Of a stretch of 32,541 nt of DNA, positions 522 to 22,534 are shown in pieces (the stretch's first letter is position 1; each line of letters starts with the position of its first letter). The position numbers and the translations under genes were made by a program. Under the pieces are notes generated by a model, which saw only the letters and a program-made list of their open reading frames with translations, was not told the DNA's origin and did no database searches. This stretch comes from a virus. The DNA is taken from IMG/VR virus record IMGVR_UViG_3300032242_001184, positions 1-32,541 of that record. One strand, written 5' to 3'.

Positions 522-550
522 ATTATAGCACCAACTTGATTTATTGTCAA
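522..550 (-). promoter_or_regulatory. Consensus sigma70-type promoter
   Basis: TTGACA (545-550) and TATAAT (522-527) with a 17-nt spacer. It overlaps the end of the HNH gene at 547-903 and reads into the hairpin at 450-499. Confidence 0.85.
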
Positions 551-903
551 ATTTTATGCTGTAGTACTTTTGTTTTCATTTCATAATGAATTTCAGTGTG
601 GCAATTCCTACAGACTAAAATACACTTATCTAATTCTTTTCGCAACTTATCTAGGTTGTATCCTCGACCGTTACTTAGTGCAAACTCTTTTTGCTTAGGA
701 TCAACGTGATGAAATTCTAATGCATCCATACACTTATCATACCCACAACAAGAACATTTGCCTCCGTATTCTTGTTTAACAATTTTAACATTGTCTTTAC
801 CACGCTGGGCAGTTCTTACATTCCAACATTCTTTACAATACCAACCCTGACTATTGTAAAAGTGTTCTTGACCTTCTTTGCTACAAGTTTTACATTTCCA
901 CAT
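547..903 (-). CDS. HNH homing-type endonuclease, 118 aa
   Basis: A free-standing HNH nuclease of the kind scattered through T4-like phages, which cleaves DNA and can mobilise itself or neighbouring genes. Four zinc-type cysteine pairs are visible (CKTC near residue 4, CKEC near 23, CSCC near 50, CRNC near 98). The core is LEFHHVDP followed by the CRNCH finger. The ATG is preceded by a GAGGAAA ribosome site and a late-type octamer GATAAATA (924-931). It sits between structured RNA and tRNA-Arg(TCT), with no intron or disrupted target in view, so it is probably intergenic. The nuclease assignment is firm; homing activity is inferred. Confidence 0.85.
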   Translation of the reverse strand: MWKCKTCSKEGQEHFYNSQGWYCKECWNVRTAQRGKDNVKIVKQEYGGKCSCCGYDKCMDALEFHHVDPKQKEFALSNGRGYNLDKLRKELDKCILVCRNCHTEIHYEMKTKVLQHKI

Positions 904-1354: not shown

Positions 1355-1915
1355 TTAGGATAACAAAATTCTACTATGTTTAGGGACACCTGCAAGCAAG
1401 TATTCCATTTGGTCAGCAAGAATAGTTCTATGCTGTAGAATCATGTTTTCATAGTGGTTAGGTGCATAAGGTGCATACAATAGTTCCATACGTGCTTCTT
1501 TCAAAGTCTTATGGCCCTTCTTGCTATTACATTCCTTACATGCAGTTACCACGTTCATCCAAGTGTTTTCACCACCATGATACTTAGGTACAATGTGGTC
1601 ACGACTTAGATTGTTGTAGTTGGCATGATGTTCGCCGCAGTATGCACAAACATAACGGTCACGACCAAACAAGGTTCTGTTAGTCAATGCAACAGTTGAA
1701 TGCTTATGTGGGTTAAAGCTATGTCCCTTAATCGCAATGATTGAAGGAGATTCTAGGTAGCTTTCAGTTCCATCATTACGTACACCACCTCTATACTTAG
1801 CCACAACTTCACCCATACTCCATGCTACTGAATCAGTTGCGTGGTATGAGATTGCGTCATCGTATGAGATCCATTGCCGGGGAACTCCTGAAATGTCTAG
1901 TGCTAGAACAGCCAT
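1355..1915 (-). CDS. HNH endonuclease, 186 aa
   Basis: A second, unrelated-looking HNH nuclease. The C-terminal half carries the classic layout: CAYCG (near 90-94), the DHIVP motif with the catalytic His, a conserved Asn and the ACKECN finger with KKG. The N-terminal part (ALDISGVPRQWISYDDAISY) resembles the N-terminal domain of the widespread stand-alone HNH proteins of bacteria and cyanophages. A strong AAGGAG ribosome site precedes the ATG, with a late-type octamer CATAAATA at 1945-1952. It sits between tRNA-Arg(TCG) and tRNA-Thr, so it may help shuffle or spread the tRNA array, although that role is inferred. Confidence 0.88.
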   Translation of the reverse strand: MAVLALDISGVPRQWISYDDAISYHATDSVAWSMGEVVAKYRGGVRNDGTESYLESPSIIAIKGHSFNPHKHSTVALTNRTLFGRDRYVCAYCGEHHANYNNLSRDHIVPKYHGGENTWMNVVTACKECNSKKGHKTLKEARMELLYAPYAPNHYENMILQHRTILADQMEYLLAGVPKHSRILLS

Positions 1916-2458: not shown

Positions 2459-3037
2459 TCAAAACTCTTTATTTGACGATATGTCAGCATATCCCGGCAC
2501 TATTAGTGCATTTTCGTTATGGGATCGTATCAAATCTGCTTGGATAGGTCCGTGTAATTTGCCTTTCCATTGTATTGCGGCTGAAGTCATTTCTTCTGGT
2601 TTATACCACTTTTGAAACGCTAGTGTAACAAATCCATCACCTACTACAGCATCAGATATTCCACCATGTACTTCTCCGGGCATTAGTTTTGTATCAGTGA
2701 TACCCCATTTCATTGAAGTACCATTTTCTTGTTTTGGTGCTAAACTTCCTCCACCTAACTGCATAATGATTACTTCCATATCCGGATGTGAATGTTCTAA
2801 TATTTGCATTTGAGGGAACTCTAAATAGAATTCAACTTGATACATGCCTTTACGAAAAACACATACTGCCGAAGCATCATCACTGTGAATTACTTCTGCG
2901 TTCCATGGAACCATTAATGGCATTCTAGCATCTACATACCATTGTACAAAATCTTCTAAAGTGTCCCAATCATTTGGTATTTCAATATTTGCAAAATACT
3001 TTATTGAATCAAACTTTTTCCAAGTTCGAATAGTCAT
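2459..3037 (-). CDS. Cupin-domain protein, 192 aa (copy 1)
   Basis: A small cupin with a metal-binding core: EHSHPDMEV provides the two His and Glu of motif 1 and GEVHGG the His of motif 2. The N-terminal segment (DWDTLEDFVQWYVDARMP) and the C-terminal stretch (MTSAAIQWKGKLHGPIQ) are nearly identical in layout to the paralogue at 15406-15996. Cupins with this metal triad act as dioxygenases, isomerases or sensors; the substrate is unknown. The start overlaps the upstream gene by ATGA, so it is translationally coupled. It is part of a small unit (two ~100-residue proteins and a cupin) that mirrors the large accessory cluster. Confidence 0.8.
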   Translation of the reverse strand: MTIRTWKKFDSIKYFANIEIPNDWDTLEDFVQWYVDARMPLMVPWNAEVIHSDDASAVCVFRKGMYQVEFYLEFPQMQILEHSHPDMEVIIMQLGGGSLAPKQENGTSMKWGITDTKLMPGEVHGGISDAVVGDGFVTLAFQKWYKPEEMTSAAIQWKGKLHGPIQADLIRSHNENALIVPGYADISSNKEF

Positions 3038-3345
3038 ATGTTATCCTTTACTTCAGTTTTGATACTGATGGTGTTTATGTTATTATTTCTATCATATACT
3101 ATCATAGGTATGATATAATTGTCGTAGCAAAAAACATCAGTCATATAATCTAGTGCATCTTTTCTAGAATTCCAATATGTATGTATGCTCAGTATTAATT
3201 TATCTTTTGTATATTCTTGCTCTACTTTGAGTAATTTATTATGAAATATTCTATTGACATATTCATTATTATACATGTTATTGATTTCGGTATAAAAAGG
3301 AACGTCTGTGTTTACTCTTTTTTGTTCTTTTGTTATTTTAAACAT
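3034..3345 (-). CDS. ~100-residue family protein, copy 2
   Basis: 103 aa. I chose the ATG at 3345, not the in-frame GTG at 3360, because the product then begins MFKITKEQ and aligns from residue 1 with MFKLIKKF of the copy at 11077-11391. Motifs shared with the family are the PFY near residue 17, the Y-T-K-D-K-L-I-L-S strand, then W-N-S-R and a D-x-x-x-Y segment. No function is known; a dimeric alpha/beta-barrel is a guess. The late-type octamer ACTAAATA ends 4 nt before the ATG, with no ribosome site, so the mRNA may be leaderless. It is divergent from the plus-strand PP-loop gene 27 nt away. Confidence 0.68.
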   Translation of the reverse strand: MFKITKEQKRVNTDVPFYTEINNMYNNEYVNRIFHNKLLKVEQEYTKDKLILSIHTYWNSRKDALDYMTDVFCYDNYIIPMIVYDRNNNINTISIKTEVKDNI

Positions 3346-4395: not shown

Positions 4396-4400
4396 TTGTT

Positions 4401-4475
4401 TGGTGGATGATAGTGGGATCGAACCACTGACCTCTTCGATGTCAACGAAGTATTCTACCGCTGAAATAATCATCC
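4401..4475 (-). tRNA. tRNA-Val (GAC)
   Basis: Cloverleaf with encoded CCA; stem CTTCG/CGAAG, loop TTGACAT. Confidence 0.93.
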
Positions 4476-4481
4476 GAAATT

Positions 4482-4602
4482 TGGCTGCGCCCCAGGGATT
4501 CGAACCCCGACCTCGTCCTTGACAATGGAATGAAGTAGATTGCTGTTTGTATCCTTGACAGGATAACTTTTCTACGTGTGCTAACCATTACACTAAAGCG
4601 CA
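4482..4602 (-). tRNA. tRNA-Asp (GTC)-like gene interrupted in the anticodon arm
   Basis: Acceptor, D-arm, T-arm (TTCGAAT loop) and CCA are intact, but the anticodon arm is expanded by about 46 nt, so the gene is 121 nt. TGTCAAGGA occurs twice (4516-4524 and 4552-4560 on the complement), so the anticodon region is partly duplicated with a 36-nt period. The insert also contains the box AGGAT-N4-ACAGCAA found in the elements at 4611, 5383 and 7074, but with the ATCCTG half placed before it. It could be an intron, a dead gene or a processed RNA. An intact tRNA-Asp(GTC) exists at 7384-7458. The insert is too short for a group I intron. Confidence 0.6.
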
Positions 4603-4610
4603 AAATAAAA

Positions 4611-4700
4611 CAGGATAGAAAGTTTACGGATTCGAACCGTTAAGTTTCTTTTTCAGAGAAATTGCGAACCAATCGCGGTATTGTTTGCTGTGGCTATCCT
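4611..4700 (-). ncRNA. Hairpin element (E3) with tRNA-Phe-like core
   Basis: Closed by the 7-bp helix AGGATAG/CTATCCT, followed by G and T-rich sequence, with the box ACAGCAAA near the 5' side. The inside holds D-like (GCG/CGC), anticodon-like (TTTCT, loop CTGAAAA, AGAAA) and T-like (ACGG, loop TTCGAAT, CCGT) arms, but no matching tRNA acceptor stem directly on them and no CCA. It could be a decayed tRNA-Phe trapped in the element, or a tRNA with an extended acceptor region. Confidence 0.5.
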
Positions 4701-4786: not shown

Positions 4787-4863
4787 TGGTAGCCTCACTG
4801 TGACTCGAACACAGGACCCCCGCCTTATCAAGACGGTGCTCTAACCAACTGAGCTATGAGGCT
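4787..4863 (-). tRNA. tRNA-Ile (GAT)
   Basis: Canonical cloverleaf with encoded CCA, loop TTGATAA, normal T-loop. Compare the aberrant Ile(GAT) at 5301-5374. Confidence 0.95.
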
Positions 4864-4960
4864 AAACTTCTTTGGGGTGACCACTGGGAATCGAACCCAG
4901 ACTAAGAGAATCACAATCTCTGTTGCTAACCGTTACAACATGGCCACACCAAAGAAGTTT
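4864..4960 (-). repeat. Perfect 12-nt inverted repeat flanking tRNA-His
   Basis: AAACTTCTTTGG (4864-4875) and its complement (4949-4960) enclose tRNA-His, and one arm includes the CCA. The precursor can form a long coaxial extension of the acceptor stem that hides the CCA end until processed. Confidence 0.6.
4873..4947 (-). tRNA. tRNA-His (GTG)
   Basis: Cloverleaf with encoded CCA, loop TTGTGAT, discriminator C73 as expected for bacterial His. The base at position -1 is T, not the usual G, so the G-1 identity element would have to be added or supplied otherwise. Confidence 0.92.
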
Positions 4961-5139: not shown

Positions 5140-5300
5140 ATTATAAAGGCGGGAGCCTAACTATCTTGTTGTTAGCAAGCCTTGTTAGATTGTCTCGAAT
5201 AAGAGAGTTTATACTACCATGTAATCGTGTGCGGTGTCACATAGCCGACCAAAACTATGCTAGATTACTAGGGACTCTATCTTACCGTCTATCCCAAAAC

Positions 5301-5374
5301 TGGTTCCCTGTCGAGGTAACGATCCTCGGTCGCACGATTATCAGTCGTGTGCTCTACCTTTGAGCTAACGGGGA
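5301..5374 (-). tRNA. tRNA-Ile (GAT), divergent
   Basis: Anticodon stem CACGA/TCGTG with loop CTGATAA is clean. The T-loop is ATCGTTA in place of TTCGAAT, swapping the T54-A58 pair to A54-T58, and the acceptor has one C-A mismatch. It duplicates the normal Ile(GAT) at 4787. About 160 nt upstream (5140-5300) holds no gene but several short hairpins. Confidence 0.75.
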
Positions 5375-5382
5375 ATATAAAA

Positions 5383-5444
5383 CAGGATGTATTTTTACGA
5401 GTTGAATTAAAAGTTCAGTGTATAAAATTTGCTGTTAACATCCT
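5383..5444 (-). ncRNA. Hairpin element (E1)
   Basis: 7-bp closing helix AGGATGT/ACATCCT with box ACAGCAAA after it, then G and TTTTAT. It lies between the CCA of tRNA-Leu and the start of tRNA-Ile. The inside holds a TGAA/TTCA stem with 7-nt loop CTTTTAA, which looks like a Lys anticodon loop; this may be chance. Confidence 0.55.
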
Positions 5445-7073: not shown

Positions 7074-7129
7074 CAGGATGCATTTGTTTTCACCAAAAGA
7101 AAAGTTTTTAACTTTGCTGTTAGCATCCT
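7074..7129 (-). ncRNA. Hairpin element (E2)
   Basis: 7-bp closing helix AGGATGC/GCATCCT with box ACAGCAAA, then G and TTTTAT, between tRNA-Cys and tRNA-Thr. The inside holds a 5-bp stem TTTTC/GAAAA with a 7-nt loop TTTTGGT. Compared with E1 and E3, closing-pair positions 6-7 change on both sides together. Confidence 0.55.
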
Positions 7130-7383: not shown

Positions 7384-7458
7384 TGGCGATGCGTGGGAGA
7401 ATCGAACTCCCGTCTTCGGATAGACAATCCGAGATAATGACCATTATATGAACGCACC
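7384..7458 (-). tRNA. tRNA-Asp (GTC), intact
   Basis: Encoded CCA; stem TCGGA/TCCGA, loop TTGTCTA. This is the functional counterpart of the interrupted gene at 4482-4602. Confidence 0.94.
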
Positions 7459-9028: not shown

Positions 9029-9942
9029 GTAAGTTCCTTTATTTTTGTCATAGCTTTGTTTTTCAATTGTTTCAAATACTCATGAGGAGAATCTAGTATT
9101 TCGTTTTGTTGTTTACTTTTATAGTCATCAAAGAGTTGAACAACATAATTTTGTTCGTTGTCACTTAATGGTATAAGGTTTTGTATTCTATCTAGTAGCA
9201 TTGCAGAGTTATGATCCATGAGATATTTATAGGGCAACAATGTACATTGTTCATTTATAAATTCTGAGAGGTTGTACGGTGTCGGGCTTAAATGTCCATT
9301 ATGTGCAAACACAGGCAGATGTTGGTATTCTCCTAAATGATAAAATTTTAATGTTCGGTCAATAGTAAAGTATGTCATAACATCTTTGTCGTTGATAGCC
9401 TCATCTATCTTTTCTTTAGGTAGAATTGTTGATAGATCCATTCTAATCAACTTATTCCAATAATTGGTTACTTGATGCCATTCTTCTTCTGAGAAGGGTG
9501 TAGACATATCATGGTCTGTTAAGTTTTTAATACAATGCATAAATGTTATTGCTAATTGTTCTTCTTCAGTCTCTGCGGTAATCACTAAGATTTTTGAGTT
9601 TGGAAATAAATTAGTATAATCACTTATGTTGTTATAATCATGTGTCCAAGTAATAGATGTACCAGTAACATTGGACTGTATCATACTCTTATAGTATTGA
9701 AGTCTTTCAACCTCTGAATAAAACTTTCTACGTTCTGATACAAACGTACCCAACGATATATAGTCCCTGCCACTTATCTTTCTATTCACTATGTTGTTAG
9801 AATGAGTGCTACCGGTAGATGCAACATCAAGTTTGTCTAATTTTTTTGATTGTAAGTTGTTCAATAATCCAACAATGAAGTTACCGCTGGCTCCCGGAGC
9901 AAAAACTACAAAAATATGCTCTAAGTCAAATACAGAACTCAT
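9025..9942 (-). CDS. P-loop transferase-like protein, 305 aa (paralogue of 14049-15050)
   Basis: Begins FDLEHIFVVFAPGASGNFI, matching FNLSHIFVVFHPGAAGNFI of the gene at 14049. The G-rich turn after a hydrophobic strand is a Walker A or PAPS-binding-like loop. A later shared segment (TWTHDYNNI, then LFPNSKILVIT) resembles the second conserved region of sulfotransferases, as in other phage transferase-like proteins. Both copies end with a similar helical stretch (SPHEYLKQLKNKA against NPIEYLQVLKQKA). Function is unassigned; sulfotransferase fold is an inference. ATGA overlap with the P450 gene. Confidence 0.62.
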   Translation of the reverse strand: MSSVFDLEHIFVVFAPGASGNFIVGLLNNLQSKKLDKLDVASTGSTHSNNIVNRKISGRDYISLGTFVSERRKFYSEVERLQYYKSMIQSNVTGTSITWTHDYNNISDYTNLFPNSKILVITAETEEEQLAITFMHCIKNLTDHDMSTPFSEEEWHQVTNYWNKLIRMDLSTILPKEKIDEAINDKDVMTYFTIDRTLKFYHLGEYQHLPVFAHNGHLSPTPYNLSEFINEQCTLLPYKYLMDHNSAMLLDRIQNLIPLSDNEQNYVVQLFDDYKSKQQNEILDSPHEYLKQLKNKAMTKIKELT

Positions 9943-11075
9943 ATTGTCTCTATGATAATATTTGATATCATGTCATCATTACCTGATGCAGTCATTACAA
10001 ATTTTAAATCTTCATTGGGTGTTACTATGCGATACATGCCATTATCTAATAGTGCTTCTAAATAAACTGCCATTACTGCTTTGCTTATTGCTAGTGCTAT
10101 ACACGCATGTACTCCATACCCAAATCCAAGATGACTACTAGTATTTCTGTGCAGGTCAAATACTTCTGGATCATTGAAGATATTTGAATCTCTGTTAGCA
10201 GACTCCAAACACAATGCCACTCTATCACCTGATTTCAAATTAACATTATGTAGTGTAATGTCCTTAGTCACTGTTCTTGTAAATCTACCGGTAGATGCAC
10301 GAAATCGCAGTGATTCATTTATAGCTTGAGGTATAAGACTACGATCTTCCATTAACTTAGTTAATTGATTTTCTCTAGCCAAATCTAGTGTTAAAAATTC
10401 TAGTGCTCCGGTTAATGAACTTGCTCCTGAAACACAAGGACCAGTGAACAACGAATTTACTACTGCACCGGTTGGATTGTTATTCATGTATTCATGATAT
10501 ATGCCCGAGCCTGTGGATTCTGTACGCTTTAATGTAGTTAGTTTAAATAATAATTTACTAAATTCAATAGTAGAGGTATTGTCAATATTCTCTGAAACAC
10601 ATTTTGACGAATGCCTCTGCATATCAAATATCAAATCTTTGATATAAGATTTATCACACGGCAGGTTCAGTGTTTCCGCAATTGTCCATGCTGATATTTC
10701 TTCTGTAATTTCTGAAATGTTAAAAGTACCCTTACCAAGCAATCGTTTAGTATGTTCTTTGGCACAATTACTTATGCGTTGTATGTTTTCTTTGCTGTAT
10801 GCGGCAAAGGCAATATTTTTATAGATGGTATGTACAGGGTGATCGCTTGCGCCCAACGACATATTAAATCTATCTTCACTTTCTACAATCAAATTTCCTT
10901 TAGCTGAGGAGAATGTGTTGTGATCTGTTAGTGCAGACTTTACATCATTGTATCTTGTTATCACATGAACGTTGTATTTTTCATTATAACGTGCTGTATT
11001 CTCATTACGTAGTGTTTTATAAATTTCAAATTTATTCAACAACCAATCATTAGAGTGCGGGTTAAAGTAGTCCAT
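9939..11075 (-). CDS. Cytochrome P450-like protein, 378 aa
   Basis: A soluble P450 monooxygenase fold: ExxR in the K-helix (Glu254-x-x-Arg257, NESLRFRA) and the haem loop FGYGVHAC with Cys325 as the proximal ligand, plus an N-terminal P450 profile. At 378 residues it is slightly shorter than bacterial P450s. The I-helix region reads TGPCVSGASSLTGA, where most P450s have AGxxTT with an acid-alcohol pair; the acid and Thr seem to be missing, which may mean unusual chemistry. ATG 11075 is preferred to an in-frame TTG at 11087 because GGAG lies 6 nt ahead of it, and the upstream gene stops at 11077. It needs a redox partner; none is fused, though the rubredoxin gene lies downstream of no evident ferredoxin. 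Very rare in phages. Confidence 0.9.
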   Translation of the reverse strand: MDYFNPHSNDWLLNKFEIYKTLRNENTARYNEKYNVHVITRYNDVKSALTDHNTFSSAKGNLIVESEDRFNMSLGASDHPVHTIYKNIAFAAYSKENIQRISNCAKEHTKRLLGKGTFNISEITEEISAWTIAETLNLPCDKSYIKDLIFDMQRHSSKCVSENIDNTSTIEFSKLLFKLTTLKRTESTGSGIYHEYMNNNPTGAVVNSLFTGPCVSGASSLTGALEFLTLDLARENQLTKLMEDRSLIPQAINESLRFRASTGRFTRTVTKDITLHNVNLKSGDRVALCLESANRDSNIFNDPEVFDLHRNTSSHLGFGYGVHACIALAISKAVMAVYLEALLDNGMYRIVTPNEDLKFVMTASGNDDMISNIIIETI

Positions 11076-11076
11076 G

Positions 11077-11391
11077 TTATTCTCCAACGCAAATAGTTTC
11101 TGTAATTATATTGTTTTCTAAATTATACACATGGTTATTTATAAAATTTTGCACTATGCATGGTGTTTTATCAAATGCCATCAACAAAAAATCATCTGAC
11201 GTATTGAATTCCATAGTGACAGTTAGGGTAAGCATGTCTTTGGATAACTCATTTGATTGACTTAGTATCAATCCAGTATCAATATATGTTGTCTTCATCA
11301 CTAATTTAAATTCATCTGTCAAAGGATTAACGTCCCTGTAAAAGGGTATCTCTATGTTTGGTCTTGTGAATTTTTTAATTAGCTTAAACAT
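11077..11391 (-). CDS. ~100-residue family protein, copy 3
   Basis: 104 aa, starts MFKLIKKFTRPNIEIPFYRD, aligning with the copy at 3034-3345. Middle strands L-T-L-T-V-T and a T-S-D-D-F-L segment follow the family layout. Function unknown. The consensus promoter at 11397-11425 puts its start point at or next to the ATG, so this transcript is probably leaderless. It heads the operon with the P450 and two P-loop proteins. Together with the two copies next to cupins, this suggests the small protein serves as an accessory or partner of oxygenases. Confidence 0.7.
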   Translation of the reverse strand: MFKLIKKFTRPNIEIPFYRDVNPLTDEFKLVMKTTYIDTGLILSQSNELSKDMLTLTVTMEFNTSDDFLLMAFDKTPCIVQNFINNHVYNLENNIITETICVGE

Positions 11392-13114: not shown

Positions 13115-14041
13115 TTATTCTTGTTTTACTTTTTTAATTATAGGGGCCCACATATCATATTCTTTTTTAACATATTTTTTAAAATCCACAGAAGTCATTG
13201 TTACTGGTGTGGCACCCAATGTTAAAAATTTGTCTGTTGATTTTTTTACTGAATCATTGATAACACTATTAAATTCACTAATGTAACTCGGGTCTGTACC
13301 TATAGGTGCAAATAGACCAAACCAAGTAGTTATTACTAAATTAACTTTAGATTCTTGTAATGTAGGCACATTGGGTAAAATAGCAAACCGATTTTTAGAA
13401 GTTACTGCAATCGCTCTAAGTTTTTTTGAATTAATATGCTGTATTACTCCGGGAATGGTAGCAAACATCCATTGAGTATTACCTGATATTAAATCTACTA
13501 CAGCTTCTGAACCCTTATAAGGAATATGAGTAGACATAATGCCTGTATGTTGTGCAAATAACAAAGAAGCCATGTGTGCTGTAGAACCTATACCAGTACT
13601 ACCATGATTTACTTTTTTAGGAAACTGTTTACTATACGCTAATAAATCATCTATAGTATAAATATCGGACGATGCAGGGACTACTAAAACTAATGGAACT
13701 TGTGCCATGATTGCAATAGGTTCTAAATCTAATAGAGGTTCAAAATTCATTTCATACAATACAGGATTAGATACAAAAAGACTTCCTCCTGTCACCAATA
13801 TTGTATTTCCGTCTGGTTTACTTTTTACTACTTTTTCTGCACCTAAATTTCCACCTGCTCCGGTTTTAAATTCAACCATAATTCGCTGTGACCATTTAAT
13901 ATCTAAATTTGCAATAACTTCTCTAGCTAGTAAGTCAGTTGTGCCACCGGGAGAATGAGTAACTACAAACGTGATTGGTTTAGATGGTTGGGCATGTATA
14001 TTTATTGCCCATAACAATAAAAACGCTAATATATGTTTCAT
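13115..14041 (-). CDS. Bug/TctC-family periplasmic binding protein, 308 aa
   Basis: A hydrophobic signal peptide (residues about 1-17, then HAQPSKP) precedes a tripartite-tricarboxylate-transporter receptor fold: SPGGTTDLLAREV, GAGGNLGAE, VTGGSLFVSNP, HGSTGIGSTAH, IPYKGSEAVVDLISG and the FGLFAP turn are all family-typical. Such proteins bind carboxylates in the periplasm and normally work with the TctA/TctB membrane proteins, absent in this window. The family is vastly expanded in Burkholderiales, so a betaproteobacterial donor or host is likely. Its role in phage infection is unclear: capture of a carboxylate substrate or priming of the host's uptake are options. A late-type octamer AGTAAATA ends 4 nt before the ATG. 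Confidence 0.92.
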   Translation of the reverse strand: MKHILAFLLLWAINIHAQPSKPITFVVTHSPGGTTDLLAREVIANLDIKWSQRIMVEFKTGAGGNLGAEKVVKSKPDGNTILVTGGSLFVSNPVLYEMNFEPLLDLEPIAIMAQVPLVLVVPASSDIYTIDDLLAYSKQFPKKVNHGSTGIGSTAHMASLLFAQHTGIMSTHIPYKGSEAVVDLISGNTQWMFATIPGVIQHINSKKLRAIAVTSKNRFAILPNVPTLQESKVNLVITTWFGLFAPIGTDPSYISEFNSVINDSVKKSTDKFLTLGATPVTMTSVDFKKYVKKEYDMWAPIIKKVKQE

Positions 14042-17853: not shown

Positions 17854-18410
17854 GGGTCTGATGAGAATCTAAAGCTTACAGATATGCGAATATTATCCGT
17901 GCTATTGTATATAGCATGAGGAACAGTGTTGTTCATAATAACCGGGGTATTCAAAATATATCTATCAATTTCTTTTAGTGTTGATTTGGCATAGAATATA
18001 TAAGAACCTTCAGAAGGATCGGGCAATGGTACATAGTCTTTTGGTCCACTTATATATTCATAGAATATTACCGGTGTTTCTGTGCAATTTTGTATGCCAA
18101 AATTCATACTGAGACAGCCCTTACTATCACCGTGTGTTATCGGTGGCTCTACATTTTTGTCTACATGTGCATCTTTTTCCCCCGCACCGGGATGAACCAC
18201 AATATAACATACATTTGTTAGTTTGTTTAATACATTCAGTTCAGTTAAATATTGAACTGTATCTGGGCAATTTGCAAAAAATTTCAACAAATCTACTGTC
18301 CAAAGACCTGTTGGTTTGCCCTCACAGTATGGCAAAATGAATTTTGTTAATTCTTCTTGTATTACATTTATGTTAGGTGTGTTTAAATATCTATAAGTAA
18401 ATAGGTTCAT
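17826..18410 (-). CDS. Putative Fe(II)/2-oxoglutarate-type oxygenase, 194 aa
   Basis: HVD (His82, Asp84 in DAHVDKN) and PHAIYN (His165) form the iron facial triad, with Arg175 or 177 in IRISVSF available for 2-oxoglutarate. GAGEKDAHVD recalls the aspartyl/asparaginyl beta-hydroxylase family. Overlaps the upstream oxygenase by ATGA and the downstream sulfotransferase by 28 nt, so three genes form a tight unit. Substrate not known. Confidence 0.68.
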   Translation of the reverse strand: MNLFTYRYLNTPNINVIQEELTKFILPYCEGKPTGLWTVDLLKFFANCPDTVQYLTELNVLNKLTNVCYIVVHPGAGEKDAHVDKNVEPPITHGDSKGCLSMNFGIQNCTETPVIFYEYISGPKDYVPLPDPSEGSYIFYAKSTLKEIDRYILNTPVIMNNTVPHAIYNSTDNIRISVSFRFSSDPWNLTQTNQ

Positions 18411-19123
18411 TTTTGTATAAGATGATCTATGTCTTTGGTTCCATTTACAGAAATCATAAAGGTATATCTATCATGCTTGCTCATATTCAGTACAGCATGT
18501 TTGTATCCTGTATTTAAAAAATATGCTTTACCCGGGACAAATGTAGTAGCTTCAACATTGTTCTTAACCCAAAATAAATTTACACACTCAGGGTCAGCAA
18601 TGACAGGTATGATGATTCTAACTGCATAGCTAGGATCATAATCTATATGCGGGGTGATATTACTACCTGCTTCTAATTTTACCAAACGAATTCTAGTGGT
18701 TTTTCCCTTGAACTTATTAGTAATTCTGTCAAACACATGTGCATATCTTTTATAAATTTCAGTCTTTACTGTGTATGTTGATTCATTCATCACGCTAGAT
18801 GCATCTAATCCTAAGGATTGTTTTCTTTTGTGATTAGACAAAATACCGGAATCGTGCAGACTTTCATGCACAACTTCACATTCGTCTAATGTGATAGATT
18901 TATTTTCTACGGTGCTATCTGTTAATCCAATTTGAAAAAAGTTATCATATACAGATTTTGAGAGTTCATGATGAATCCCACACAGACCTTTGTTAACTTC
19001 TAATACTGATTTGAATTCAGTATTCAACTCATTCACGCAGTTGACTAGCTCTCTAAGCAAGTCATCTTCCAAACACAGATGCTCAACTACACAATGTGGC
19101 GGTAGTCTATGTTTCAGTTTCAT
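18407..19123 (-). CDS. Aspartyl/asparaginyl beta-hydroxylase-like oxygenase, 238 aa
   Basis: ATG 19123 was chosen since it overlaps the desaturase stop by ATGA; an upstream in-frame start would extend into the desaturase. His159-x-Asp161 (TPHIDYDPSYAVRIIIPV), distal His209 (GYKHAVLN) and Arg219 (DRYTFMIS) are all present, as is the jelly-roll segment between them. This is the best supported 2-oxoglutarate oxygenase in the window. Such enzymes hydroxylate side chains or free amino acids. The neighbours (desaturase, oxygenase, sulfotransferase) suggest a series of modifications on one scaffold, though that is inference. Confidence 0.8.
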   Translation of the reverse strand: MKLKHRLPPHCVVEHLCLEDDLLRELVNCVNELNTEFKSVLEVNKGLCGIHHELSKSVYDNFFQIGLTDSTVENKSITLDECEVVHESLHDSGILSNHKRKQSLGLDASSVMNESTYTVKTEIYKRYAHVFDRITNKFKGKTTRIRLVKLEAGSNITPHIDYDPSYAVRIIIPVIADPECVNLFWVKNNVEATTFVPGKAYFLNTGYKHAVLNMSKHDRYTFMISVNGTKDIDHLIQK

Positions 19124-19824
19124 TTTACACTCATTAATTTGTGTAAATGTCCGCCCCAATCAGCCCAATGTCTGAATGAAGGGTTAGCAGGTTCTTCGTG
19201 GTGATTCTTGTGCCAGCCTTCACCACCGCTAAAGTAGCCAAGAATAGATACATTAACAGGACCTTTGTCATCATGACAAAATATATTGATTAGGCTACCA
19301 CTGAACCACATCAAAAATGCAGGTACAATCAACAACGCCCAATAGTAAGTAAAAGATAAAAACAATATACCTAGTACATGTAATATCAATAATACTTTGA
19401 AATAGTATTTGTGTTGAAATAGATACCAAGGTTTACGCAACAAATCAGGGACGTATCTTATTATATCTTCTGCACCACTAGAGTACCAATATGTTTTCAA
19501 TCTACTATGGTGTTTTGGACTGTGTGGGTCTTTTTCTGTGTCACTATAACGATGATGTTTTCTATGAGTTCCGGCCCATGCTAGTGCAGATCCTGACATT
19601 CCAATCCAAGATAACAATATCAAAATCTTTTCTACTAATGGATTAATTGATTGTTTGTGAGATACTGCTCTATGAAAAAAGGCAGTACCGCATATTCCTA
19701 CATAAACTATCTGCGATATGATAACTGCAGGTATTGAGATTGTTAAGGGTAGGAAGAACAAGCCCAGTACAAACAGTATGTGGGCGTAAATCTGTATCAT
19801 TAGTAATTTTTGTCTTGGGTTCAT
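19120..19824 (-). CDS. Membrane fatty-acyl desaturase, 234 aa
   Basis: Three histidine boxes: HRAVSH (51-56), HRKHH (87-91) and HKNHH (215-219), the di-iron centre of delta-9-type acyl-CoA or acyl-lipid desaturases. Hydrophobic stretches near 10-45, 63-85 and 142-178 fit two membrane hairpins. It would introduce a double bond into host membrane lipid or a lipid substrate. It is short for the family (usually 260-300) but all boxes are kept. It heads the oxygenase operon with a late-type octamer 5 nt before the ATG. Reducing power (cytochrome b5, ferredoxin or rubredoxin) must be supplied. Confidence 0.92.
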   Translation of the reverse strand: MNPRQKLLMIQIYAHILFVLGLFFLPLTISIPAVIISQIVYVGICGTAFFHRAVSHKQSINPLVEKILILLSWIGMSGSALAWAGTHRKHHRYSDTEKDPHSPKHHSRLKTYWYSSGAEDIIRYVPDLLRKPWYLFQHKYYFKVLLILHVLGILFLSFTYYWALLIVPAFLMWFSGSLINIFCHDDKGPVNVSILGYFSGGEGWHKNHHEEPANPSFRHWADWGGHLHKLMSVK

Positions 19825-21360: not shown

Positions 21361-21827
21361 TATCGTACCTCCACTTGATTTAATTCATCTAACTTAGCTT
21401 GATATGCTTCTGCGTGACGTTGTTCTACTTTTGCAAGTGCGGCAAAACGCTTTTCAGCTTTGGCCAATACAGCCTTGAATTCTTCCGCATGTTCCTTTGA
21501 CTCATTGATTTGATTTTGTGCTTCATTGGCAGCTTTCAAGTTACCTTCAAATTCAGCAACTTCTTTGAAGTGAGGATACATTTCTGTAAATTCATATGTT
21601 TCACCTTCAATCGCTAGCTCCAAACACTTGCGTGTGTCTGGCTTACCAATAATCAATTCTAAGTGACCCCATGAGTGTAGTAACTCTTGGTCTGCTGTAT
21701 GCTCAAAGTGCTTTGCAATTTCCTCAAAGCCTTCTTCACGTGCAATTTTTGCAAAGTATCGATACTTAGTGTGTGCCTGGCTTTCTCCGGAATATGCTGT
21801 ATGTAAACTGTTAATTGTTTCTGACAT
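21360..21827 (-). CDS. Rubrerythrin (di-iron domain only), 155 aa
   Basis: Four-helix di-iron (erythrin) protein with ExxH motifs: SGESQAHTKYRYF, ADQELLHSWGH, EGETYEFTEMYPHFKEVAE and VEQRHAEAY. Rubrerythrins reduce hydrogen peroxide. Only the erythrin part is present; the rubredoxin part is the next gene (21232-21360). Rubrerythrin is usual in anaerobes and microaerophiles but also found elsewhere. In a phage it may protect RNR or iron enzymes from peroxide. AAAGGAAA ribosome site and a GATAAATA octamer (21847-21854) lie upstream. Confidence 0.9.
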   Translation of the reverse strand: MSETINSLHTAYSGESQAHTKYRYFAKIAREEGFEEIAKHFEHTADQELLHSWGHLELIIGKPDTRKCLELAIEGETYEFTEMYPHFKEVAEFEGNLKAANEAQNQINESKEHAEEFKAVLAKAEKRFAALAKVEQRHAEAYQAKLDELNQVEVR

Positions 21828-22154: not shown

Positions 22155-22534
22155 TAGTGCCTCTGTTTATAGTCGTTTACTGCGGCTTTAATGGCGTCTT
22201 CGGCAAGGATTGAACAATGGATTTTGACCGGGGGGAGTGCAAGTTCTTCTGCAATTTGACTGTTTCGGAGCTCGGCAGCTTCATCGAGTGTTTTACCTTT
22301 GACCCACTCAGTGACAAGACTTGAGCTAGCAATTGCCGACCCGCACCCATATGTTTTAAATTTGGCATCTGTTATTAATCCTGTTAGTTTATCTACTTTG
22401 ATTTGTAATTTCATTACGTCACCGCATGCAGGGGCTCCAACCATTCCTGTACCTACATCTTCATCGTCTTTTGCAAACGAACCTACATTGCGAGGGTTCT
22501 CGTAATGATCTACTACTGCTGCTGAATAAGCCAT
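22154..22534 (-). CDS. iscU: IscU-type iron-sulfur cluster scaffold, 126 aa
   Basis: Full length for IscU (about 128). All three ligand cysteines are present (Cys37 in GAPACGD, Cys64 in YGCGSAIASSS, Cys107 in KIHCSIL), the assembly Asp39 and the LPPVK motif (100-104) recognised by the HscA chaperone. It would assemble 2Fe-2S clusters with host IscS and deliver them through host HscA/HscB. No IscS, IscR or chaperone gene is in the window. Phage-encoded IscU supports the P450 partners, RNR, and iron enzymes; rarely reported. CAGGAG ribosome site; an ACTAAATA octamer (22554-22561) is upstream. Confidence 0.93.
   Translation of the reverse strand: MAYSAAVVDHYENPRNVGSFAKDDEDVGTGMVGAPACGDVMKLQIKVDKLTGLITDAKFKTYGCGSAIASSSLVTEWVKGKTLDEAAELRNSQIAEELALPPVKIHCSILAEDAIKAAVNDYKQRH

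What the first reader, a model, noticed from the sequence alone, without database searches (positions are those of the whole stretch)
4482..4602. tRNA-Asp interrupted by 46 nt that carries the same box in permuted order
The anticodon arm is split, TGTCAAGG appears twice 36 nt apart, and the insert has ATCCTG before AGGAT-N4-ACAGCAA, a circular permutation relative to the spacer elements. An intact tRNA-Asp exists too, so this may be an unusual intron, a decoy or a decayed copy.
Basis: seen in the sequence. Interest (0 to 1): 0.7.

Follow-up and report, generated by a model that had tools for sequence, protein, structure and literature searches.

The report
Phage tRNA carrying Ro60-partner RNA module
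The odd insert in this phage tRNA gene is probably not an ordinary intron but a small structured RNA module that travels with a phage relative of the human autoantigen Ro60; the same module recurs beside that protein's gene in phages, bacteria and archaea and closely resembles the unexplained 'Class I RNAs' of social amoebas.

Summary
A tRNA-Asp-like gene (4482-4602, minus strand) is interrupted by 45 nt in the 5' strand of its anticodon stem (position 29/30). The insert is a circular permutation of an RNA element that occurs three more times between tRNA genes of the window. The element (terminal stem AGNNNNN...NNNNNCTG, then ACAGCAA) is a widespread structured RNA: its 7-bp stem covaries without a violation in 69 sequences. 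It goes with one gene family, Pfam DUF2828/DUF7788, whose AlphaFold model matches Ro60/TROVE proteins over most of its length (best: Ro60 of Thermus phage phiLo). Of 23 complete isolate phages, 11 have both, 12 neither. Searching from the gene instead, 75 of 80 viral loci carry elements, all on the gene's strand, often abutting the gene's ribosome-binding site. They also lie upstream of the gene in bacteria and archaea. Some 29 phage tRNAs with many anticodons carry the permuted module in the anticodon stem, and the split stems still pair. Best reading: a Y-RNA-like system for a Ro60-like protein, with the module grafted into tRNAs. Binding and lack of splicing are inferred. The resemblance to Dictyostelium Class I RNA makes that RNA's function testable.

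The parts
4482..4602 (-). tRNA-Asp-like RNA carrying the permuted module (5' part 4574-4602, insert 4529-4573, 3' part 4482-4528; 8-nt anticodon loop ATTGTCAA, G73, CCA)
   Evidence: syntenic relative L189 83% identical with 7-nt loop
4529..4573 (-). 45-nt insert AGAAAAGTT-ATCCT-GTCA-AGGAT-ACAA-ACAGCAA-TCTACTTCATT between positions 29 and 30
   Evidence: 27 of 29 relatives give a full 5-bp anticodon stem when the bases before and after the insert are joined; shifted controls average 3.1 pairs
4551..4564 (-). P1 hairpin ATCCT-GTCA-AGGAT (stem 4560-4564 with 4551-4555, GNNA loop 4556-4559)
   Evidence: folded in MFE; C-G to U-A double change in relatives
4540..4546 (-). ACAGCAA motif of the insert
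   Evidence: exact match
4611..4700 (-). Spacer element E1: P1 stem AGGATAG/CTATCCT plus ACAGCAA enclosing a tRNA-like part (anticodon-like arm and T-arm GGTTCGAATCC), layout like YrlA
   Evidence: R1 24.6 bits, E 2.5e-4
5383..5444 (-). Spacer element E2: standalone element with anticodon-like inner hairpin TGAA-CTTTTAA-TTCA
   Evidence: R1 59.7 bits, E 1.4e-13; same element in L088
7074..7129 (-). Spacer element E3: standalone element
   Evidence: R1 55.7 bits; Dicty_Class_I_RNA 27 bits over positions 1-56
7384..7458 (-). intact tRNA-Asp (GTC) of the same array
   Evidence: ARAGORN, Rfam

Best explanation
The insert is the protein-binding module of a Y-RNA-like family that partners a phage Ro60/TROVE-fold protein (Pfam DUF2828 + DUF7788). 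In the free form, the RNA's two ends make the P1 stem, followed on the 5' side by ACAGCAA; the interior is variable and often mimics a tRNA anticodon arm or a larger tRNA part. In the tRNA form the same stem and motif are circularly permuted: P1 is closed by a GNNA tetraloop and the module sits between positions 29 and 30 (28 and 29 in some relatives) of an otherwise complete tRNA cloverleaf. The Ro60-like protein binds P1-ACAGCAA in all three settings: free RNAs in tRNA arrays, tRNA-embedded modules, and a copy in its own mRNA leader next to the Shine-Dalgarno sequence, which probably gives translational feedback. The tRNA-embedded form probably stays unspliced and tethers the protein to tRNA-handling enzymes or acts as a tRNA decoy, roles proposed for bacterial Y RNAs. 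Shown: RNA family, structure, permutation, genomic linkage, predicted protein fold. Inferred: direct binding, feedback, no splicing, tether or decoy role.
For: RNA: P1 pairs in 481/481 cells, 111 double changes against 26 in shuffles; the 7th pair, not required by my scan, has 4 pair types and no violation. Gene to RNA: 75/80 viral loci found by the protein alone carry R1 hits, 135 hits, all on the gene's strand; 79 letter-permuted motifs give a mean of 0.15 hits against 76. RNA to gene: DUF7788 in 29/36 element-bearing records against 2/25 controls, and in 16/22 element-bearing records of a second set including window relatives L005, L088, L099, L120. Isolate phages: 11 both, 12 neither, 0 discordant. 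Bacteria and archaea: 43 R1 hits at E about 0.01 or less in 32/80 loci, all on the gene's strand. Leader copies end 5-15 nt before the start codon in many loci. Protein: Foldseek top hits are Ro60/TROVE entries 9l5y, 9kop, 1yvr, 2nvo, 9nen (E 4e-9 to 6e-6); VIA Z 19.4 over 398 residues against 10.8 for the best vWA-only match. tRNA form.
Against: No binding, expression or splicing data. The window is a 32.5-kb fragment and holds no DUF7788 gene itself; its partner is inferred from relatives. Sequence profiles do not link DUF2828 to TROVE significantly (PDB TROVE E 0.13). The AG/CTG ends and ACAGCAA were imposed by my searches, so their invariance is partly by construction. The window copy has an 8-nt anticodon loop and may be less functional than its relatives.
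Confidence: 0.75

Rival explanations
1. The insert is a true small intron, removed by an unknown phage or host activity (or self-splicing) to give a decoding tRNA.
For: Removing it gives a perfect 5-bp anticodon stem in 27/29 relatives; flanks are conserved (T|A..TT|CC); G73 fits Asp in window, L005 and L099.
Against: Bacterial tRNA introns known to me are group I or II, far longer; Rfam finds neither here. The same module has an intron-independent life as free RNA and mRNA leader. 8 of 29 relatives have an 8-nt anticodon loop. The split stem can pair with the insert in place. An intact tRNA-Asp is also encoded.
Confidence: 0.13
2. Decoy: the tRNA-embedded and anticodon-mimic forms divert host anticodon nucleases from phage tRNAs; the Ro60-like protein stores or protects them. 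This can hold together with the best explanation.
For: Many standalone elements carry GACTNNTAATC loops like tRNA-Lys, Thr, Asn or Arg arms. For YrlA a competitive-inhibitor role has been suggested (PMC7790460).
Against: Many inner hairpins are not anticodon-like; no nuclease gene association was tested.
Confidence: 0.25
3. Decayed tRNA pseudogene with a chance or duplicated insertion.
For: 8-nt anticodon loop in the window copy; intact tRNA-Asp elsewhere in the array.
Against: Covariation across the insert, same place in unrelated phages, intact acceptor, D- and T-arms and CCA.
Confidence: 0.04
4. The module is only an autoregulatory or processing signal (e.g. for RNases in tRNA arrays), and the DUF2828 linkage reflects shared regulation rather than binding.
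For: Elements lie between tRNAs and at the gene's leader.
Against: Presence and absence match perfectly in 23 isolate phages, including 12 without elements, most of them with tRNA genes; the Ro60-like fold predicts RNA binding.
Confidence: 0.12

Closest known systems
Ro60 (TROVE/Rsr) with Y RNAs, including bacterial YrlA
   Same: Ro60-fold protein (helical repeats plus vWA with MIDAS), partner RNAs closed by a terminal stem, RNA genes beside the protein gene, tRNA-like modules in some RNAs (window E1, L421, L385).
   Different: Protein is Pfam DUF2828/DUF7788; TROVE is not among its Pfam matches. RNA has a different signature (AG...CTG stem plus ACAGCAA) and no Rfam Y RNA or YrlA match at gathering. 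The module also occurs circularly permuted inside tRNAs.
Dictyostelid Class I RNA (RF01414)
   Same: About 56-60 nt, terminal stem beginning with G and ending CUG(U), 11-nt motif next to the 5' stem (Rfam consensus CCUUACAGCAA), variable interior; the Rfam model aligns full length.
   Different: No hit reaches the gathering score (best 34.1 bits against 41.5). Reported as unique to dictyostelids (PMC7919456). Whether dictyostelids carry DUF2828 was not tested.
Ro60 of Thermus phage phiLo (PDB 9l5y), Ro60-like mycobacteriophage proteins (PMC12363180), ROT/TROVE proteins in jumbo phages (PMC7824862)
   Same: Phage-encoded Ro60-fold proteins.
   Different: The passages read describe no RNA family of this kind, and neither paper came up in the search for DUF2828. 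No paper for 9l5y was found in the library.
Permuted tRNA genes and tRNA introns (algae, archaea; from general knowledge)
   Same: Permutation and interruption of a tRNA.
   Different: Here the added RNA module is permuted, not the tRNA halves; the insertion is at 29/30 within the anticodon stem.

Membership tests
Ro60/TROVE protein | Full-length Ro60 fold (helical-repeat ring plus vWA) | tested here: met
   Foldseek and VIA top hits all Ro60/TROVE, Z up to 19.4 over 398 of 468 residues; model pLDDT 77.8
Ro60/TROVE protein | Significant sequence-profile match to TROVE | tested here: not met
   Pfam gives DUF2828 and DUF7788, vWA_Ro60 only at E 0.02; PDB TROVE E 0.13
Ro60/TROVE protein | Binds Y RNA or misfolded RNA | not testable with these tools
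   needs biochemistry
Y RNA / YrlA | Rfam Y RNA or YrlA model match at gathering | tested here: not met
   Only a 21.4-bit YrlA match (gathering 69) elsewhere, at 4838-4901
Y RNA / YrlA | Encoded beside the Ro gene, terminal stem, optional tRNA-like module | tested here: met
   in relatives; the window itself lacks the gene
Dictyostelid Class I RNA (RF01414) | Score at or above gathering (41.5 bits) | tested here: not met
   best 34.1 bits; archaeal element 32.4
Dictyostelid Class I RNA (RF01414) | Terminal stem starting with G and ending CUG(U), plus 11-nt motif next to the 5' stem | tested here: met
   full-length alignment, positions 1-56; definition from PMC7919456
Dictyostelid Class I RNA (RF01414) | Dictyostelid host | tested here: not met
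   found in phages, bacteria and archaea
Dictyostelid Class I RNA (RF01414) | DUSE promoter upstream | not tested
   not searched
tRNA | Acceptor, D-, anticodon and T-arms, CCA | tested here: met
   96% of cells pair over six helices in 14 relatives, insert left in place
Group I intron | Conserved catalytic core, usually over 200 nt | tested here: not met
   45 nt, no Rfam intron match in the window
Archaeal/eukaryal BHB tRNA intron | Bulge-helix-bulge at exon junctions and a splicing endonuclease | not tested
   insert lies in the stem at 29/30; endonuclease genes not searched

The most novel reading that the evidence does not exclude
DUF2828/DUF7788 proteins form a second large branch of Ro60-like RNPs across phages, bacteria and archaea, all using one ancient RNA signature (AG...CTG stem plus ACAGCAA). 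Dictyostelid Class I RNAs are the eukaryotic form of that RNA. Phages graft a circularly permuted copy into tRNAs of many anticodons, making tRNA-RNP hybrids.
Probability: 0.45. Interest if true: 0.92.

Novelty: new variant of a known kind. Interest (0 to 1): 0.83.

Why it matters
It gives a likely function (a Ro60-like RNA chaperone or tether) to two uncharacterised Pfam domains found beside these RNAs in phages, bacteria and archaea, and supplies the partner RNA family. It offers a direct test for the function of Dictyostelium Class I RNAs. It shows a natural circular permutation in which one RNA-protein docking site is apparently used as a free RNA, as an mRNA operator and as an arm inside tRNAs. 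It also warns that phage 'tRNA with intron', 'tRNA-OTHER' and 'suppressor tRNA' annotations can be something else.

Tried and rejected
Group I or other Rfam intron: none found. Chance 8-mer repeat as a meaningful duplication: rejected, because the hairpin loop is a variable GNNA tetraloop. Idea that the standalone elements are permuted intron-exon genes making circular RNAs: considered from L091, dropped because P2 plus the anticodon-like hairpin explains the sequences simply. CsrA-like GGA site: the GGA is buried in P1, dropped. Third RNA class upstream of DUF2828 in freshwater phages (L024 and others): no Rfam gathering match besides tRNAs, not resolved. NCBIfam and PADLOC gave no match for the protein. 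Literature searches for DUF2828 or phage Y RNAs found no description of this RNA family; the library is open-access only and the Ro60/Y RNA review PMC10870794 was not held. My first D-arm finder misplaced position 26 and was corrected. Alignment A4 had wrong coordinates for some rows and was replaced by A5.

Full report
Observation. The minus strand of 4482-4602 reads TGCGCTT TA GTGTAATGGTTAGCAC A CGT | AGAAAAGTT ATCCT GTCA AGGAT ACAA ACAGCAA TCTACTTCATT | CC ATTGTCAA GGACG AGGT CGGGG TTCGAAT CCCTG GGGCGCA G CCA. It is a tRNA-Asp-like cloverleaf (G73, CCA) whose anticodon stem is split after position 29 by 45 nt. AGGATN4ACAGCAA occurs exactly four times in the window, all on the minus strand and all inside the tRNA array; the reversed control pattern gives none. 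Three copies are spacer elements with the complementary ATCCTG downstream; the fourth, in the tRNA, has it upstream.

A widespread RNA. Most of the 26 loci scanned for tRNAs lie in tRNA arrays; a minority of matches overall look like chance matches in coding DNA. Part of these are tRNAs of many anticodons, part a longer RNA directly upstream of one gene, part chance.

The tRNA form. In 29 embedded tRNAs, joining the bases before the insert (27-29, or 27-28) with those after it gives five of five anticodon-stem pairs in 27; shifting the 5' part by -3 to +6 gives a mean of 3.1 (the frame was chosen as best, which inflates the true value somewhat, and in about ten members the 3' part alone could form the whole stem). 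In an alignment of 14 members, with the insert left in place, 95.9% of cells over six helices pair, with 65 double changes against 19 in shuffles; pair 28-42 is G-C in seven and U-A in seven. So the cloverleaf is maintained across the insert and the module hangs as an extra arm. L189 is syntenic with the window (83% over 4397-4600) and has a normal 7-nt loop, ATGTTAA. The Asp relatives L005 and L099 have ATGTCAA. The window's extra T makes an 8-nt loop, seen in 8 of 29 members.

The partner gene. BLAST against isolate phages found the module in phages of Synechococcus, Cronobacter, Vibrio, Mycobacterium and Pseudomonas, and in five of the records a ~470-aa gene lies next to it. Pfam calls it DUF2828 plus DUF7788; PHROG 850 calls it RNA-binding protein. 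DUF7788 is in 29 of 36 element-bearing records against 2 of 25 control contigs and none of 14 control genomes. One of the two control hits (L181) was put among the controls without inspecting its element. In a second set of 22 element-bearing contigs (two overlap the first) 16 have it, including the window's relatives. Among 23 complete isolate phages, 11 have both elements and gene and 12 have neither (Fisher exact about 7e-7 by hand). Several of the 11 were picked through element similarity, so the 12 negatives, most of which have tRNA genes, are the informative side.

Gene-first test. Searching viral contigs with the protein alone gave 80 loci. A strict scan found 76 elements, all on the gene's strand; 79 letter-permuted motifs gave 0.15 on average. 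Covariance model R1 found 135 elements in 75 of 80 loci (locus count made by hand); three of the five exceptions are cut off just upstream of the gene. Some contigs overlap those of the pattern searches, and some R1 training sequences come from these loci, so the strict scan with its null is the cleaner test. Control loci gave nothing comparable except pattern-selected coding matches (best 24.2 bits). The stem varies among AGAAT, AGGAT, AGGTT, AGAGT, AGACT and others, with matching partners: 481 of 481 cells pair, 111 double changes. In most loci examined one element ends 5-15 nt before the start codon, its 3' strand abutting the Shine-Dalgarno sequence, the anatomy of a translational operator.

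Protein fold. The AlphaFold model (pLDDT 77.8) has N-terminal helical repeats and a C-terminal vWA domain with DVSGSM. Foldseek ranks Ro60 of Thermus phage phiLo, a TROVE domain, Ro autoantigen 1yvr, Deinococcus Rsr and human Ro60 first. VIA gives Z 19.4 over 398 residues against 10.8 for the best vWA-only match. Sequence profiles alone do not reach significance.

Bacteria and archaea. The gene is found in many bacterial genomes (Ruminococcus, Lachnospiraceae, Chloroflexi, Treponema and others) and in Woesearchaeota and Lokiarchaeota records (some of these may be prophages or misbinned contigs). R1, built from phage sequences, finds 43 elements (E about 0.01 or less) in 32 of the 80 loci, all on the gene's strand and mostly just upstream of the gene. 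In Butyrivibrio and Ruminococcus some elements enclose a tRNA-like part with a T-arm, as does window element E1: a layout like that of bacterial YrlA. In an Oscillospiraceae locus (L399), Rfam tRNA matches of 115-121 nt hold the ACAGCAA module.

Dictyostelium link. Rfam's Dicty_Class_I_RNA model aligns end to end to these elements (27 bits for window 7074-7128, up to 34.1 bits in other phage records, 32.4 bits for a Woesearchaeota element found gene-first), always below the gathering score of 41.5. The Genome Research 2021 paper (PMC7919456) describes Class I RNAs as ~60 nt, stem-closed, with conserved AAG start and CUGU end and an 11-nt motif next to the 5' stem, and as restricted to dictyostelids. 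The match of ends, stem and motif suggests the same protein-binding design, by descent or convergence. Whether dictyostelids have DUF2828 could not be checked here.

How it most likely works. By analogy with Deinococcus Rsr, which is tethered by Y RNA to PNPase, and with YrlA, whose tRNA-like part may compete for an anticodon nuclease (PMC7790460), the Ro60-like protein binds P1-ACAGCAA, and the attached tRNA or anticodon-mimic part engages tRNA enzymes or nucleases. Splicing of the tRNA form is possible but unsupported.

Limits. There are no wet data; the window is a fragment without the protein gene; the searches used exact motifs, so the invariance of AG, CTG and ACAGCAA is overstated. Relatives show ACTGCAA, TCAGCAA and TCTGCAA, and other stems.

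Noticed in passing
window 5140-5300 (-): 161-nt spacer between tRNA-Ile and tRNA-Ser; part of it (5191-5308) is 96% identical in L189 and 88% in L107, so probably another structured RNA; no Rfam match.
   Followed up: partly
L024 about 2948-3150, also L051, L054, L129, L283, L298, L310: Longer conserved RNA directly upstream of the DUF2828 gene in freshwater phages, containing ATCCT-loop-AGGAT-N4-ACAGCAA; no Rfam match in the three loci scanned.
   Followed up: partly
standalone elements of L005-L124: Inner hairpins of many standalone elements read GACTNNTAATC, a copy of t6A-type anticodon arms (Lys, Thr, Asn, Arg, Ser).
   Followed up: partly
window 9942-11087 (-): Cytochrome P450 gene (PF00067, E 1.2e-19) in a tRNA-rich phage contig.
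   Followed up: no
window 13118-14041 (-): TctC tripartite tricarboxylate receptor (PF03401, E 1.3e-58); such receptors are abundant in betaproteobacteria (general knowledge), a hint to the host.
   Followed up: no
window 19123-19824, 21363-21827, 22157-22534, 18410-19159 (-): Fatty acid desaturase, rubrerythrin, NifU-like and aspartyl hydroxylase genes: possible auxiliary metabolic genes.
   Followed up: no
window 547-903 and 1355-1915 (-): Two HNH-endonuclease-like ORFs between tRNA genes of the array (the second confirmed by Pfam).
   Followed up: no
L236 2862-3105; L241 2149-2263: Public annotations call module-bearing tRNAs 'tRNA-Ser' (121 nt), 'tRNA-OTHER' and 'tRNA-Sup'.
   Followed up: yes
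L399 2849-2964, 3470-3584, 3799-3919: Oscillospiraceae contig with tRNAs of 115-121 nt that carry the ACAGCAA module with a stem that lacks the AG/CTG ends.
   Followed up: partly
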